NCBI RefSeq assembly: GCF_003853705.1
Contig: NZ_QTQI01000006.1
Span: 1-64,000 of the forward strand
Direction of reading: 5' to 3'
DNA length: 64,000 bases
Source of the DNA: Burkholderia sp. Bp8992
GTDB lineage: Bacteria; Pseudomonadota; Gammaproteobacteria; Burkholderiales; Burkholderiaceae
The stretch's first letter is position 1, and every line of letters begins with the position of its first letter. The translations under genes and the position numbers were made by a program. The notes under the pieces are model-generated. The model saw only the letters and a list, made by a program, of their open reading frames with translations. It was not told where the DNA came from and did not search any database. Positions 54,533-61,410 of this stretch are shown here, one piece after another.

Positions 54533-55648
54533 TCAGTCTCCGAGAAACGCGACGATCAGGCGGTTCACGTCGGCGGCCGCTTCCATCTGCACCATGTGCC
54601 CGCTGCCGGCGATCACCTCGGCCCGCACGCCGTCGGGCAAGCCCTGCGCATGCTGCGCGGGGATCACCTGGTCGTGCTCGCCCCAGATCACGAGCGTGCG
54701 CGGCGCGAGCGTCGCGAGCCGGTCGCGGAACACGCGCCGCTGTGCCGCCCCGTCGAACGCGGCGTTCGCGATCTTCTCCAGCGCGGCCTGCACGCCCTCG
54801 AGCCGCTTGTACTTGACGAGATCCTCGACGAGCTGCCGCGTCACCAGCGCGTTGTCCGCGAACAGCGCGCCGAGGTGCGGCTTCAGCGTGTTGCGGCTGT
54901 TGCCGGCGACGAAACCGTCGATGTACGCACGGTTGATGTCGGTGCCGAGCCCCGCGCTCGCGATCAGCGTCAGCGACGCGACGCGTTGCGGTGCGCGCTC
55001 GGCTGCGGCCATCGCAACCGCGCCGCCCATCGAATGGCCGATCAGGTGCGCGCGCTCGATGTGCTGCGCGTCGAGCAACGCGAGCACCGCATCGGCGAGT
55101 TCGTCGAGGCTGCCCGTATCGACCGCCTTGCCCGATTCGCCGTGCCCAGGCAGGTCGAGCGCCCACACCGGCCGGTGCGCGGCGAGGTCCGCGTGATTGA
55201 ACAGCCAGTTGTTCAGGTCGCCGCCGAAGCCGTGGATCAGCACGGCCGGTGTGCCCGTGCCGTCGCCGAGCTTCAGGAAGCGCATCGTGCGGCCGCCGAT
55301 CTGCGCCTTCTCGGGCTGCGGGCCCGCCGCTTCTTCGGACGCCGCGGCAGGTACGAAATCGCGCTGGAAATCGGCGATTGCCGCATCGATGTCGGCCTCG
55401 CTCGCCTCGGCTGCCGCGACGACGCCGAGCAGCGCGCCGACCGGCAGCGTCTCGCCCTCCTGCGCGACCTGTCGGCGCAGCGTGCCGTCGAACGCGCATT
55501 CGACGCCCGACGAAATCTTGTCGGTCTCGACGTCGAGCACTTCGTCACCCTTCGTCACGCGTTCGCCGATCGCCTTCAGCCAGCCATTGACCTGCCCCTG
55601 CTCCATCGACAGCCCCCACTTGGGCATCGTGATCATGTGAATCGACAT
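54533..55648 (-). CDS. acoC: Acetoin dehydrogenase E2 (dihydrolipoyllysine acetyltransferase)
   Basis: The 371-residue protein combines an N-terminal lipoyl domain (lipoyl-lysine Lys44 in [12 protein letters not shown]) with an alpha/beta-hydrolase domain. The hydrolase part has the nucleophile elbow GHSMGGA (Ser206) and His351 in GSGHMVQ. This fusion is the known form of AcoC in Cupriavidus and Pseudomonas. It differs from ordinary E2 proteins, which have a chloramphenicol-acetyltransferase-like core. It would take the acetyl group cleaved from acetoin and transfer it to CoA. It lies 4 bases after acoB. Confidence 0.94.
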
Positions 55649-55652
55649 CGTG

Positions 55653-56657
55653 TCAGCTCCTCGTCTTCAGGGCCGCCTGCGCAATCGCATCGGCGGTCGG
55701 GATGTACAGGTCTTCCAGCACGCTCGCGAACGGCGTGGGCGTATGCGGCGCGGTGACGAGCTCGATCGGCGCCTTGAGCGACCGGAACGCGCGCTGCGCG
55801 ACGAGCGCGGCGATGTCGGTCGCGATCGAGCAGCGCGGGTTCGCTTCGTCGACGACCACCACGCGCCCGGTGCGCTCCGCGCTTTCGAGAATCGTTTCCT
55901 CGTCGAGCGGCGACGTCGTGCGCAGGTCGATCACGTCGCACTGGATGCCGTCCTTCGCGAGCTTCGCGGCCGCGTCCGTCGCGAGATGCACCATCCGGCC
56001 GTACGTGACGATCGTCACGTCGTCACCGTCGCGCACGACGTTCGCCTCGCCGAACGGAATGGCATAGGATTCCTCCGGCACGTCGCCTTCACGCGTATAG
56101 AGCAGCTTGTGCTCGAGGAAGATCACGGGATCGTTGTCGCGGATCGCCTGGATCAGCAGCCCCTTTGCGTCGTACGGCGTCGCCGGGCACACGACCTTCA
56201 GCCCCGGAATGTGCGTGAACAGCGACGTGAGCATCTGCGAGTGCTGTGCGGCCGCGCGCAAGCCAGCGCCGTACATCGCGCGGATCACGACCGGCGTCAC
56301 GGCCTTGCCGCCGAACATGTAGCGGAATTTCGCGGCCTGGTTGAAGATCTGGTCGAAGCACACGCCCATGAAATCGATGAACATCAGCTCCGCGACGGGC
56401 CGCATCCCGCATGCGGCAGCTCCTACCGCCGCGCCGATGTAGCCGCCCTCGGACAGCGGCGTATCGAGCACGCGGCCCGGAAACTTGTGGAACAGCCCTT
56501 TCGTCACGCCGAGCACGCCGCCCCATGCGTCGTCCTCGCCCGGCGCACCCGCGCCGCCCGCGTTGTCCTCGCCCATCACGATCACGCTGTCGTCGCGCGC
56601 CATTTCCTGCGCGAGCGCTTCGTTGATCGCCTGCGAATAAGTGATCTTCCTTGCCAT
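55653..56657 (-). CDS. acoB: Acetoin dehydrogenase E1 component, beta subunit
   Basis: The 334-residue beta subunit of the thiamine-diphosphate-dependent E1. Family features are MARKITYSQAINEALAQEMARDDSVIVMGEDNA and RVLDTPLSEGGYIGAAVGAA with the catalytic-pocket Glu. MYGAGLRAAAQHSQ and VDEANPRCSIATDIAALV complete the pattern. It follows acoA by 54 bases and precedes acoC by 4. It could be confused with pyruvate dehydrogenase beta, but the acoA-B-C-X-R context decides for acetoin. Confidence 0.94.
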   Translation of the reverse strand: MARKITYSQAINEALAQEMARDDSVIVMGEDNAGGAGAPGEDDAWGGVLGVTKGLFHKFPGRVLDTPLSEGGYIGAAVGAAACGMRPVAELMFIDFMGVCFDQIFNQAAKFRYMFGGKAVTPVVIRAMYGAGLRAAAQHSQMLTSLFTHIPGLKVVCPATPYDAKGLLIQAIRDNDPVIFLEHKLLYTREGDVPEESYAIPFGEANVVRDGDDVTIVTYGRMVHLATDAAAKLAKDGIQCDVIDLRTTSPLDEETILESAERTGRVVVVDEANPRCSIATDIAALVAQRAFRSLKAPIELVTAPHTPTPFASVLEDLYIPTADAIAQAALKTRS

Positions 56658-56711: not shown

Positions 56712-57695
56712 TCACGGATACGACACGTAGACGTCGGTCAGCAGGTCGGCGGCATCCGGCACCGGCGCGGCCTTCGCCTGCGCGACCGCGTCGTCGATCA
56801 GCGCCTTCACCTGCGCGTCGACCGCGCGCAGGTCGGCCGTCGTCAGCGCCTCGGCGCGCACGACGCGCGTTTCGAAATGCTTCAGGCAGTCCTTCTCGTC
56901 GCGCAGCTTCTGCACCTCGCCCGGCGCGCGGTAGGTTTGCGCATCGCCTTCGAAGTGACCGAAATAGCGCGTGAACTTCACCTCGACGAGCGTCGGGCCG
57001 CCGCCGTTGCGTGCGCGCTCCACGGCTTCGCCGAGCGCTTCGTGCACCGCGAAGAAGTCGAAGCCGTCGACGATCACGCCCGGCATCCCGAAGCCGTTCG
57101 CGCGATCCGCGATGTTGTCGGTCGCGACCGACCAGCTCGACGACGTCGCTTCCGCATAGCCGTTGTTTTCGGCGACGAAGATCGCGGGCAGCCGCCACAC
57201 CGACGCAAGGTTCATCGATTCGAAGATCACGCCCTGGTTCGACGCGCCGTCGCCGAAGAAGCACACGCCGACGCCGCCCGTCTTCCGGTGCTTCGCCGCG
57301 AGCGCCGCGCCGCATACGAGCGGGCCGCCCGCGCCGACGATCCCGTTCGCGCCGAGCATCCCCATCGACAGGTCGGCGATGTGCATCGAGCCGCCCTTGC
57401 CGTGGCAGACGCCCGTCTTCTTGCCGTAGATCTCGGCCATCATCCCGTGCACGTCGACGCCCTTCGCGATGCAATGGCCGTGGCCGCGGTGCGTGGTCGC
57501 GACGTAATCGGCGAGACCGAGGTGCAGCATCGTGCCGACCGCGGACGCCTCCTCGCCCGCGTACAGGTGAACGAAGCCGGGGATCTCGCCGGTCGCGAAT
57601 TCGACGTGCAGGCGCTCCTCGAATTCGCGGATCGTGCGCATCAGCCGGTAGGCGTCCAGCAGCGTGTCCCTGCTGAGCTGTGTCGAAGCGGTCAT
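56712..57695 (-). CDS. acoA: Acetoin dehydrogenase E1 component, alpha subunit
   Basis: The 327-residue alpha subunit binds thiamine diphosphate and cleaves acetoin to acetaldehyde plus a hydroxyethyl group. The cofactor motif is GDGASNQGVIFESMNLA ending in AENNGYA, the GDG...NN pattern. The active-site loop HRGHGHCIAKGVDVHGM is complete. The ATG at 57695 has GGAG 7 bases upstream. The gap of 82 bases in front of it contains the end of an SDR remnant (57778-57858). Confidence 0.94.
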   Translation of the reverse strand: MTASTQLSRDTLLDAYRLMRTIREFEERLHVEFATGEIPGFVHLYAGEEASAVGTMLHLGLADYVATTHRGHGHCIAKGVDVHGMMAEIYGKKTGVCHGKGGSMHIADLSMGMLGANGIVGAGGPLVCGAALAAKHRKTGGVGVCFFGDGASNQGVIFESMNLASVWRLPAIFVAENNGYAEATSSSWSVATDNIADRANGFGMPGVIVDGFDFFAVHEALGEAVERARNGGGPTLVEVKFTRYFGHFEGDAQTYRAPGEVQKLRDEKDCLKHFETRVVRAEALTTADLRAVDAQVKALIDDAVAQAKAAPVPDAADLLTDVYVSYP

Positions 57696-57777
57696 GTGTG
57701 TCTCCTGGGTAGGTCTGGTCTGACTGCGAATGCCGCCGCGGCGCTGCCGTGGCGACGGATTGCACGGCCTGCGGCCG

Positions 57778-57858
57778 TCAGTGGAACGTGAAGCCGCCGT
57801 CGACGTTCACGGCGTGGCCCGTGACGATGGCAACCGATCCCTCGACTGGGGCTGTCAT
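57778..57858 (-). pseudogene. Internally deleted short-chain dehydrogenase remnant in the aco operon
   Basis: A 26-codon frame begins with ATG at 57858, preceded by AAGGAG 8-9 bases upstream. Its first 14 residues are MTAPVEGSVAIVTG, the typical SDR start just before the Rossmann Gly-rich loop. They run directly into HAVNVDGGFTFH and a TGA stop, the typical SDR C-terminus. Everything between (about 220 residues in a normal SDR) is missing, and the frame is kept. The join lies at VTG, a tripeptide found at both ends of many SDRs, so recombination between short direct repeats is a likely cause. SDRs in aco clusters often reduce acetoin/diacetyl or oxidise butanediol. The remnant cannot be an enzyme. 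Confidence 0.8.
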
Positions 57859-57916
57859 GGCGATGTCTCCTTGATGATCGTTATGGATATCGAAATGTGC
57901 CGCGTGAAACCGGCGC

Positions 57917-58975
57917 TCAGTCATGCCGCGCGCCGGCGTCGCGCAGCAGCTGCCGCGAAGACGCGTAGCGCAGCGTGCGGCCGACGTCGACCGTCAGCGG
58001 CCCGCGCCAGTCGAGCGAGATCTCGTAGCGATCGCCGCGCGCGACCTCGATCTCGCGCTCGCCGTCGAACGCAAGCGTGCCGCGCTCGAATGGAATCACC
58101 TGCCACGTGTCCGGTTCGAGCCGCTCGCAACTGCGCATCACGACGCGGTCGATGCGCCCCGGTGCGATCGGTGCGGCGAGCGGCGTGCCCCCCGTCTTGC
58201 CGGCCTCCGCGAAGCGCATCGCGAGCCCGTGCGGCGCGCTGCGTTCGAGCGGCGCCCACGCGCCGCCGAGCGCCGACAGGCCGATGCCGTCCGGCTCCGC
58301 GAACGTCAGGTAGAGCGAATCGATGTCGTCGGAAGCGGAGATCGCACGCGCGCCGATGAAACGCTGCCGCGCGGCGCACACGTCGACGAGCGCGATTTCC
58401 TCGCGCCCCGGCTGCGCGCCCGCCACGCAGCGCACGACGAGCCGCTTGTTGTGCACGAACGCGACTTCGGGCGGCACGGCGCCGGTCGCCGCGAGCGCTG
58501 CCGCGACGCCGGCGACAGTCGCCTCGCGATGTTCGGGAAACGCGTTGTTGGTGCCGGTGGACAGCGCGACGAGCGGCGTCGCGCCGCAATGCGCGGCCAC
58601 CGCGCGATGGGTGCCGTCGCCGCCAAGCACGACGATCAGCGCGACTTCCATCCGGTGCAGGTAGGCGGCGCCGGCTTGCGTGTCGGCGACGCTGTCGGTG
58701 ATCGGCAGGTCGACGAATTCGACCTCGGGCCAGCGTTCGTGCGGCGCGACCGCGCGATGCGTGTCGATCGCGCGCAGCAGCAGCGTCGCGATGCCCGTGC
58801 GGTCGCGCAGCGTCAGCACGCGCTCGACGCCCATCGCACCGAGGCCGGCCAGCAGGCGCACGATCATGTTCGCCTTCTCGGCCGTCGGAAACACGGATGC
58901 ATGCGTCGTGAGGCGGCGAATGTCGCGCCCCGATGCGGGGTTCGCGATCACGCCGACGGTAACGGGCGTCGTCAC
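57917..58975 (-). CDS. acoX: AcoX, ATP-NAD kinase-like protein of the acetoin cluster
   Basis: A 352-residue protein of the NAD-kinase/diacylglycerol-kinase superfamily. The nucleotide motif is VVLGGDGTHRAVA, followed by ALSTGTNNAFPE, equivalent to the GGDGT and NE/D motifs. The N-terminal VGVIANPASGRDIRRL is typical of AcoX. Genes of this family accompany acetoin dehydrogenase in many proteobacteria, but the reaction is not established. The start is the GTG at 58975 with GGAG 8 bases upstream. It is the first gene of the operon, about 105 bases after the predicted sigma-54 start point. Confidence 0.9.
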   Translation of the reverse strand: MTTPVTVGVIANPASGRDIRRLTTHASVFPTAEKANMIVRLLAGLGAMGVERVLTLRDRTGIATLLLRAIDTHRAVAPHERWPEVEFVDLPITDSVADTQAGAAYLHRMEVALIVVLGGDGTHRAVAAHCGATPLVALSTGTNNAFPEHREATVAGVAAALAATGAVPPEVAFVHNKRLVVRCVAGAQPGREEIALVDVCAARQRFIGARAISASDDIDSLYLTFAEPDGIGLSALGGAWAPLERSAPHGLAMRFAEAGKTGGTPLAAPIAPGRIDRVVMRSCERLEPDTWQVIPFERGTLAFDGEREIEVARGDRYEISLDWRGPLTVDVGRTLRYASSRQLLRDAGARHD

Positions 58976-59090
58976 GGGTTCGTCTCCATCCAGTGGGCCG
59001 GCATGCCGGCCCTGCCTGTTTCGTCCGCTGCCATCGACGGGCAGCGGATCGTCGTCGCCGACGCGACCGCATCGGCTTGCCCTTGATCTC

Positions 59091-59106
59091 TGCAAGCGGC
59101 GTGCCA
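59091..59106 (-). promoter_or_regulatory. Consensus sigma-54 (-24/-12) promoter of the aco operon
   Basis: On the minus strand TGGCACG (59106-59100), four bases, then TTGCA (59095-59091) match the sigma-54 consensus exactly, with the invariant GG and GC at the right spacing. Transcription should start near 59080 and read acoX. The activator AcoR, encoded divergently, has the GAFTGA loop needed to contact sigma-54. Confidence 0.9.
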
Positions 59107-59352
59107 TCGTCACTGCAATAACCGTGGAACCCGCGTGCACGCTGGCGCGGCGGACAGGCGCACGTTCCGGATTCGCGACCGTGACGGCGTCGCGCGTCGC
59201 GAACCGGCGCGGGCGTCTCACGAAGTCGATGCGACGAACCGATCGTCCCGGCATCCGCGTGTGCGCGCCGCCGTGCCTGCAAACCCCGCACACGTGCGGT
59301 TCGGCGCCTGCGCCGGCCGGCCGGACAACCGCCGCGCGCCACGCATGCGGAT

Positions 59353-59370
59353 GTCTCAATCGCGCGAGAC
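59353..59370. promoter_or_regulatory. Candidate AcoR upstream activator site (weaker dyad)
   Basis: GTCTC and GAGAC are separated by 8 bases and share the TGAGACG/CGTCTCA core of the stronger site at 59385-59402, 14 bases away. A further half-site CGTCTCAC lies at 59214-59221. Confidence 0.5.
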
Positions 59371-59384
59371 GCGGCGAGATCCCG

Positions 59385-59402
59385 GTGAGACGAACGTCTC
59401 AC
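59385..59402. promoter_or_regulatory. Candidate AcoR upstream activator site (perfect dyad)
   Basis: GTGAGACGAACGTCTCAC is a perfect 8+8 inverted repeat around AA. It lies about 280 bases upstream of the -24 element, a distance normal for sigma-54 enhancer sites, and about 90 bases before the acoR start, so it could also mediate AcoR autoregulation. Confidence 0.65.
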
Positions 59403-59493
59403 GCCCGCCGCGTGCTGCGATGCAATGTGATCCGCCGAACCGGATGTGCTACAAGGACATCGATATCCCCGCCGTACGGAACCGGAGCCGACC

Positions 59494-61410
59494 ATGCCCT
59501 ATGCCGTCCCCCAGGCCCAGCACGCCGACCGTGTACTCGGCGCGCTCGCCGGGCGCCTGCCTGCGCCGGCCGACTCCGAGCGCCTCGTGTCGTCGTGGCA
59601 ACGCTCGCTGGAGCGCTACTGTCTCGACCCTGCTTCGTCGATCGGCCCGCGTGTGCTGACCGCGGCCGAGCTGCGCGAAGTGCGCGACAAGGAAGAGGCC
59701 TTCCTGCGCGCGTCGGGCCAGTGCCTGACGCGGCTGCACGACATGATCCGCGTCGCCGACTACTGCGTGATGCTGACCGACGCGCACGGCGTGACGATCG
59801 ACTACCGGATCGACCGCGAGCGCCGCAACGATTTCCGTCATGCAGGGCTGCACATCGGCTCGTGCTGGTCGGAAAGCGAGGAAGGAACGTGCGGCGTCGC
59901 GAGCGTGCTGACCGATCTCGCACCGATCACCGTGCACAAGACCGATCACTTTCGCGCGGCGTTCACGACACTCACCTGCAGCGCGGCGCCGATCTTCTCG
60001 CCGGGCGGCGAACTGATCGGCGTGCTCGACGCGTCGGCCGTGCATTCGCCCGACAGCCGCGACAGCCAGCGGCTCGTCTACCAGCTTGTGCGGCAAAGCG
60101 CGGCGCTGATCGAGGACGGCTACTTCGTCCACAGCACCGCGCAATACTGGATCCTGTTCGGGCATCCGAACCGTCACTACGTCGAAGCACAACCCGAATG
60201 GCTGATCGCGTTTGACGAATGCGGCAATATCGTCGCCGCGAACCGGCAGGCGCGCGACGCGCTGCCGGCGCTGCGCGAGCCGCGCCATATCGACGAGATC
60301 TTCGATGCGACCGAGATGCCGCTGCGCGATGCCGCGCGGCTCGATACGATCGTCGCGCTGCGGCTGCGCGCGACCGGCGCGCCGCTCTATGCGCGATTGC
60401 GGGCGCCGCTACGGCGCGCCGGCCGCGAGCCCGGCACGGTATCGCGCCGCGCGGGCACCGCGCCACGCCACGTCGGCGCGCTGACGCCGTTCCTGCACAG
60501 CAGCGACGCGCATATCGCGCAGCAAGCCGAGCTCGCGCTGCGCGTCGCGAGCAAGCGGCTGCCGATTCTCGTGCTCGGCGAAACCGGCGCGGGCAAGGAA
60601 GTGTTCGCGCGCGCGATCCACGATGCCGGTGCGCGGCGCGCGCGACCGTTCGTCGCCGTCAACTGCGGCGCGCTGCCGGATGCGCTGATCGAGAGCGAAC
60701 TGTTCGGCTATGCGGCCGGCGCGTTCACCGGCGCGCGCAAGCACGGTGCACGCGGCAAGATCGCGCTCGCCGACGGCGGCACGCTGTTTCTCGATGAAAT
60801 CGGCGACATGCCGCTCGCGCTGCAGACGCGCCTGCTGCGCGTGCTCGCCGACGGCGAGGTCGTGCCGCTCGGCAGCGATACGCCCGTGCGCGTCGATCTC
60901 GACGTGATCTGCGCGACCCACCGCGATCTCGCGCGGATGGTGGCCGACGGGACGTTCCGCGAAGATCTGTACTACCGGCTGAGCGGCGCGACGTTCGAAC
61001 TGCCGCCGCTGCGTGAACGCTCGGACGTGCGCGACGTGATTGCCGCCGTGTTCGCCGAGGAAGCGCAGGCGACCGGCCACGTGCTCACGCTCGATCCGAC
61101 GCTCGCCGAGCAGCTCGCCGCATACGCGTGGCCCGGCAACGTGCGGCAACTTCGCAACGTGCTGCGCTATGCGTGCGCGGTGTGCGACGCCGCGCGCGTG
61201 ACGCGGCACGACCTGCCGGCCGACCTCGTCGCGCAACTCGGCGCCGATGCGGCCGGCGCACTGCCCGACGACGAGCGCGGCCGCATCGTCGCGGCGCTCA
61301 CCGCGCACCGCTGGCGGCCCGACGCGGCCGCCAAGGCGCTCGGCATGTCGCGTGCGACGCTGTACCGGCGCATCGCGAAGCACCGGATCGTCGCACCGCA
61401 CCGCGCGTGA
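59494..61410 (+). CDS. acoR: Sigma-54-dependent activator of acetoin catabolism
   Basis: A 638-residue enhancer-binding protein. The N-terminal sensor part (about 1-330) contains a GAF-like domain ([45 protein letters not shown]). The AAA+ domain has Walker A GETGAGKE (362-369), the sigma-54-contact loop GAFTGA (409-414) and Walker B LFLDEIGD (431-438). The C-terminal HTH_8 contains [13 protein letters not shown]. AcoR is known to sense acetoin or its products. GGAG lies 7 bases before the ATG at 59494. It is divergent from the acoX-A-B-C-lipA operon it should control. Confidence 0.94.

What the first reader, a model, noticed from the sequence alone, without database searches (positions are those of the whole stretch)
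57778..57858. In-frame deletion scar of a short-chain dehydrogenase inside the acetoin operon
A 26-codon frame between acoX and acoA keeps a good ribosome-binding site, ATG and TGA. It joins the exact N-terminal segment of an SDR (ending VAIVTG) to the exact C-terminal segment (HAVNVDGGFTFH). About 700 bases of coding sequence appear to be missing, with the frame intact. The join is at VTG, which often occurs both before the Gly-rich loop and near the C-terminus of SDRs, suggesting recombination between short repeats. If recent, the strain has lost an acetoin/diacetyl/butanediol reductase while keeping acetoin cleavage. If conserved, it is an unnoticed leader peptide.
Basis: partly seen in the sequence, partly recalled or inferred. 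Interest (0 to 1): 0.75.

Follow-up and report, generated by a model that had tools for sequence, protein, structure and literature searches.

The report
Deletion scar of an acetoin reductase
A tiny reading frame in a Burkholderia acetoin operon is what remains of an enzyme gene whose middle was cut out, and related species have lost the same gene in other ways; it is an ordinary but clean case of gene loss.

Summary
In detail: on the minus strand, 57858-57778 reads MTAPVEGSVAIVTGHAVNVDGGFTFH*, between acoX and acoA. The deletion reading is supported. In 33 of 49 held genus genomes whose acoX-acoA interval could be read, that place holds an open short-chain dehydrogenase (SDR) frame of 254-268 codons, orthologous to PDB 4WEO, "putative acetoin(diacetyl) reductase". 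Against the nearest relative the window lacks exactly 696 bases (232 codons), and the ends meet in a 6-base repeat, ACGGGC, that the relative has at both ends. The junction is in 0 of 65 held genus genomes.

Two corrections. The loss lies on the window's own branch among sampled species but is not fresh: three residues invariant in 30 of 30 intact copies have changed, and dN is 0.07-0.13 against 0.009-0.014 in acoX-acoA (26 codons only). Nor is it unique: 14 other held genomes of the clade lack the gene, with at least six junctions by eye. Short frames ending in SDR-like codons remain in 4 of 48 SDR-less rows, so a conserved leader peptide is unlikely. Translation and phenotype were not tested.

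The parts
57778..57858 (-). 26-codon remnant frame: SDR codons 1-14 joined to codons 247-258 plus TGA
57817..57829 (-). Junction zone. The exact repeat ACGGGC sits inside a 13-base stretch of partial homology between the two ends of the intact gene. 696 bases are missing relative to L141.
57859..57872 (-). Ribosome-binding region AAGGAGACATCGCC kept from the SDR gene
   Evidence: sequence; the same or nearly so in the intact relatives aligned
57917..58975 (-). acoX (upstream gene of the operon); no NCBIfam model matched, name by context and from memory
56712..57695 (-). acoA, acetoin dehydrogenase E1 alpha (by context)
   Evidence: best model is pyruvate dehydrogenase E1 alpha, below its cut-off
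55653..56657 (-). acoB, E1 beta (by context)
   Evidence: E1 beta model NF006667, 350.5 bits against a cut-off of 321
54533..55648 (-). acoC, acetoin dehydrogenase E2 (NF011457, 549 bits against a cut-off of 307)
59091..59106 (-). Exact match to a sigma-54 type -24/-12 pattern (TGGCACGCCGCTTGCA), about 115 bases before acoX; possibly the operon promoter
   Evidence: the consensus is recalled. Matches with up to 2 mismatches are not enriched in the window (12 found, 23 expected); this is the only one with none
59446..61410 (+). Divergent sigma-54-dependent activator, likely acoR (by context)
   Evidence: the 25 models shown are all below their cut-offs

Best explanation
The frame is the remnant of an acetoin(diacetyl) reductase / 2,3-butanediol dehydrogenase gene of the SDR family that stands between acoX and acoA in most Burkholderia genomes with this operon. 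One deletion of 696 bases removed codons 15-246 or an equivalent shift. Most likely it arose by slippage or recombination between two short copies of GT(C/G)ACGGGC, the VTG codons near each end. The start signals, 14 N-terminal codons, 12 C-terminal codons and the stop remained. The remnant has no Rossmann fold and no catalytic core, so it cannot be the enzyme, and it now drifts. acoX, acoA, acoB and acoC are kept. Shown: the homology, the position, the length, the junction repeat, changes at conserved residues, and losses in other species. Inferred: the molecular mechanism of the deletion, the absence of the activity in this strain, and the function of the ancestral enzyme (from orthology only).
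For: The acoX-acoA distance is bimodal: about 860-1000 bases with an SDR match over codons 1-258, or under 300 bases without. 33 of 49 readable held genus loci and 10 of 41 named loci L050-L090 have the SDR. All 43 of these SDR-bearing loci have an open SDR frame. The deletion against L141 is 696 bases with 0 inserted and flank identities 114/127 and 140/142; L149 and L143 give the same 696. Junction homology of 6 bases or more is found at 665 of 144,720 positions (0.46%) for deletions of 400-879 bases in that interval. SDR and acoX-acoA distances agree (r 0.80 in 30 Burkholderia loci, 0 of 999 permutations as high), so the SDR is old and mostly vertically kept. The window sits among SDR-bearing neighbours on the tree. 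The PDB sequence 4WEO matches over 1-258 at E 1e-162.
Against: The own assembly is not held, so a misassembly cannot be excluded by reads; the drift inside the remnant argues against one. Support for window + L141 is 73 and with L144 72. SDR function rests on a PDB name: the best NCBIfam model, acetoin reductase TIGR02415, scores below its own cut-off (242.1 against 304.35), and a glucose 1-dehydrogenase subfamily model (NF005559) just passes its own (217.2 against 215). The constraint test uses only 26 codons, and one intact neighbour, L144, differs from the others by 7-8 of the same 78 bases.
Confidence: 0.96

Rival explanations
1. The 26-codon frame is a functional leader peptide or translated element kept by selection after the deletion, for example to keep ribosomes on the message before acoA.
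For: The frame, ribosome-binding region and stop are intact. Codons 248-258 and the stop are unchanged against L141. 12 of 48 SDR-less rows (L052 and L186 are one locus twice) have an ATG frame behind a ribosome-binding-like site before acoA, and in 4 (window, L153, L160, L084) it ends in SDR-like codons. L184 and L185 also have such frames without a visible SDR ending. L186 has an in-frame stretch ending RVDGGFATH whose ATG lacks a clear ribosome-binding site.
Against: 36 of 48 SDR-less rows have no such frame, and L173 is out of frame. The peptide sequences do not agree with each other. L5, Q8 and Q247, the same in 30 of 30 standard-length intact Burkholderia copies, have changed; remnant dN/dS is about 0.3-0.8 against the five nearest relatives. 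The window's junction is in 0 of 65 genomes.
Confidence: 0.04
2. The ancestor had only a short frame, and the SDR was inserted in the other lineages.
For: The Zoogloea, Actinomycetota and many Paraburkholderia loci that could be read have a short acoX-acoA interval.
Against: SDR-bearing loci surround the window on the tree and include the first branch of the 48-row clade (L187). SDR and acoX-acoA distances agree. The remnants in SDR-less species break at different SDR positions, which insertion would not produce.
Confidence: 0.01

Closest known systems
Acetoin(diacetyl) reductase / 2,3-butanediol dehydrogenase of Burkholderia cenocepacia, PDB 4WEO (SDR superfamily)
   Same: The remnant's two ends are the ends of this ortholog; the intact neighbour matches it over 1-258. 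PMC7656694 (passages seen) lists 4WEO among Bdh structures.
   Different: 232 codons are absent, including most of the nucleotide-binding fold and the catalytic core.
Gene loss by deletion between short direct repeats (general knowledge)
   Same: Exact 6-base repeat at the junction, with one copy left
   Different: Nothing special except that the deletion is in frame.
Leader peptides / short upstream frames (general knowledge)
   Same: Short frame with a good ribosome-binding site before a gene
   Different: Not conserved across relatives, 82 bases away from acoA, and drifting.

Membership tests
Deletion remnant of the aco-operon acetoin reductase gene | Both ends homologous to the intact gene at the same locus in relatives | tested here: met
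Deletion remnant of the aco-operon acetoin reductase gene | Single breakpoint with a short repeat | tested here: met
   ACGGGC, 6 bases
Deletion remnant of the aco-operon acetoin reductase gene | Loss of the constraint seen in intact copies | tested here: met
   only 26 codons, so a small sample
Functional SDR enzyme | Complete Rossmann fold with Gly-rich loop and catalytic Tyr-Lys (motifs recalled) | tested here: not met
   26 codons; Pfam finds nothing in P0002 at E 0.001
Acetoin reductase (NCBIfam TIGR02415) | The intact relative reaches the curated cut-off | tested here: not met
   242.1 bits against 304.35, though the best of 232 models by E-value
Acetoin reductase (NCBIfam TIGR02415) | Enzyme activity on acetoin or diacetyl | not testable with these tools
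   needs an assay; 4WEO is named 'putative'
Leader peptide | Conserved short frame across relatives | tested here: not met
Leader peptide | Translated in the cell | not testable with these tools
   needs ribosome profiling

The most novel reading that the evidence does not exclude
Loss of the acetoin reductase from inside an otherwise kept aco operon is parallel and adaptive in Burkholderia: it stops acetoin from being drained to butanediol while acetoin cleavage is kept, and it has happened at least six times by different deletions.
Probability: 0.15. Interest if true: 0.45.

Novelty: new member of a known kind. Interest (0 to 1): 0.3.

Why it matters
It is a clear natural example of a gene deleted in frame between short repeats. 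It also shows that one gene of the aco operon is dispensable and repeatedly lost while acoX and acoA stay. A set of species with and without the reductase is therefore available for comparing acetoin and butanediol metabolism. An annotation pipeline would probably either skip the frame or call it a small hypothetical protein (not tested).

Tried and rejected
Leader peptide: disfavoured for lack of conservation, not excluded.

Insertion instead of deletion: rejected on the tree and on the different break positions.

Selection for keeping the frame: of the Burkholderia scars that still clearly hold both SDR ends, the window and L160 are in frame and L173 is not; L153 keeps only the C-terminal part behind an internal ATG. 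That is too few to test. Check of the draft: after I raised the odds of the leader reading slightly, from 0.03 to 0.04, and lowered the count of distinct junctions from eight to six, because L166 and L179 could be later erosion of other scars.

RNA element before acoA: a GC-rich hairpin lies before acoA in most loci and is kept where the SDR is lost. In the window the fold is no better than shuffles (z -0.51, 56 of 200 shuffles as good), and only 1 of 8 predicted pairs has two-sided changes (window plus 26 of the 49 loci L141-L189, chosen by hand). Not claimed.

Rfam on 57500-59600: one match at E 0.97, far below its gathering score. Promoter and terminator consensus scan of 57600-59500: nothing found.

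Another copy of the SDR: 15 of the 16 SDR-less held genomes with the operon have no other match at E <= 1e-60; the 16th (G068) has an 80% identical one elsewhere. Only 40 candidates per genome were scored. In the window, the only tblastn hits to the 258-residue SDR at E under 1 are the two ends of the scar. Zinc-dependent butanediol dehydrogenases were not searched.

Literature: judged by titles and abstract openings, the listings (15 of 178 shown; 15 of 314 shown) held no paper on this SDR in the Burkholderia aco operon, apart from PMC7656694 on the 4WEO structure. Only that paper was opened (passages).

Full report
What is there. On the minus strand, bases 57858-57778 encode MTAPVEGSVAIVTGHAVNVDGGFTFH followed by TGA, with AAGGAGACATCGCC before the ATG. 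The frame lies between acoX (57917-58975, minus) and acoA (56712-57695, minus). acoB and acoC follow, and a divergent sigma-54-type activator (59446-61410, plus) lies on the other side (gene names other than acoC by context). A sigma-54 type site without mismatch, TGGCACGCCGCTTGCA, stands at 59106-59091 before acoX (the consensus is recalled).

Relatives. The window's assembly is not held; the nearest held genome, G001, shares 51% of its 31-letter words. acoA was used to collect loci from 61 relatives, 80 named genome contigs (the best 80 of 447) and 65 genus genomes (50 of 65 have acoA at E <= 1e-100). I fetched the operon from these 50. One, L190, has acoA near a contig edge without acoX and was dropped. 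Of the other 49, 33 hold a match over SDR codons 1-258 between acoX and acoA, and 16 do not. Of 41 named loci L050-L090, mostly Paraburkholderia, 10 hold it (L052 is the same locus as L186). All 43 SDR-bearing loci have an open SDR frame: 40 of 258 codons and one each of 254, 262 and 268.

The deletion. L149 and L143 give the same 696. The break lies in ACGGGC, present at both ends of the intact gene in L141; in L143 the second copy differs by one base. Exact homology of 6 bases or more occurs at 665 of 144,720 positions tested for deletions of 400-879 bases in the L141 interval. In the two-piece match the pieces overlap by 13 query bases. No genome of 65 has the junction within one mismatch of the pattern.

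Age and constraint. On a tree of acoX plus acoA (62 of the loci held, quick method, SH-aLRT only), the window sits with L141 (97% identity) inside a six-row group whose other five rows all have the SDR; support there is 72-88. So the loss belongs to the window's own lineage among the species sampled. It is not fresh. L5, Q8 and Q247 are the same in 30 of 30 standard-length Burkholderia SDRs (also L5 and Q247 in 10 of 10 and Q8 in 9 of 10 named Paraburkholderia-type loci) but are V, S and H in the window. Against the five nearest rows the remnant shows dN 0.072-0.131 and dS 0.109-0.392, whereas acoX plus acoA show dN 0.009-0.014 and dS 0.10-0.15. Intact SDRs have median dN/dS 0.107 over 434 pairs. 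Against this: the sample is 26 codons, and one intact neighbour, L144, differs from the other neighbours by 7-8 of the same 78 bases, with dN 0.053 there. The last 11 codons and the stop are unchanged against L141. I call relaxed constraint likely, not proven.

Repeated loss. In the clade of 48 rows that holds the window, 33 have the SDR and 15 lack it, window included. Over all 62 rows the label needs at least 13 changes, or 10 if only starred branches are trusted; such counts alone cannot tell gain from loss. Reading the intervals by eye, at least six junctions differ clearly: the window; L153, where an internal ATG now follows the ribosome-binding site; L173 (same sequence as L045, titled B. 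paludis), out of frame; L160, in frame and heavily drifted; the group L156, L171, L181 and L183, with only a trace of the C-terminal codons; and L148 with L167, which share a junction although they stand in different groups. L166 and L179 may be two more, or later erosion. The automatic pairwise alignments were stable for the window, L153, L173 and the L156 group but not for L148, L160, L167 and L184-L186, so the count is not a computed one. acoX matches over nearly its whole length (residues 1 to 345 or beyond of 352, in all but a few) in these loci, so within kept operons the SDR alone is lost.

Other short frames. Of 48 SDR-less rows (window, 16 of the held genus loci, 31 of L050-L090; L052 and L186 are one locus), 12 have an ATG frame behind a ribosome-binding-like site before acoA, and 4 of these (window, L153, L160, L084) end in SDR-like codons; 36 have none. 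The frames differ in length and sequence. This is what partial decay would leave, but it does not exclude a role for some of them.

Function of the lost gene. The intact neighbour protein matches PDB 4WEO over 1-258 at E 1e-162, named 'putative acetoin(diacetyl) reductase'. PMC7656694, of which I saw passages, lists 4WEO as a Burkholderia 2,3-butanediol dehydrogenase but says that only the Klebsiella and Corynebacterium enzymes are well characterised for chiral specificity. The best NCBIfam model is acetoin reductase TIGR02415, below its cut-off (242.1 against 304.35 bits); a glucose 1-dehydrogenase subfamily model just passes its own (217.2 against 215). So the assignment is likely but not proven. 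15 of 16 SDR-less held genomes with the operon have no other copy at E <= 1e-60 among the 40 candidates scored each; G068 has an 80% identical one. Other enzyme families were not searched.

Verdict. The finding is a true deletion scar, made most likely by slippage or recombination between short repeats, in a gene that Burkholderia species lose repeatedly. A functional leader peptide is not excluded by any experiment, but conservation and drift speak against it. The mechanism of the deletion and the metabolic effect are inferred.

Noticed in passing
window 57700-57772 (-) and the same place in L141-L187: A GC-rich inverted repeat, in most loci followed by TTCGCAGTCAGACC, lies before acoA and is kept even where the SDR is fully lost; folding and covariation support is weak.
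   Followed up: partly
window about 57715-57724 (-): A 5-base tandem duplication (CAGAC CAGAC) before the acoA ribosome-binding site, absent in the 20 relatives aligned.
   Followed up: no
L175, L187, L162 (SDR codons about 35-55): In-frame repeats or a 4-codon loss in the same stretch of otherwise intact SDRs (LDSTAREVRA doubled, LLADLLADLLAD, shortened LLADLLDATAREV), as if this stretch slips often.
   Followed up: no
L148 and L167: The same SDR-deletion junction (GTGAACGCCAAAGTCCG) in two genomes from different groups of the acoX-acoA tree, possibly exchanged by recombination.
   Followed up: no
L189 / genome G068: A relative with a distant aco operon (acoA 66% identical) has an 80% identical SDR about 3-4 kb from acoA, in another arrangement.
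   Followed up: no
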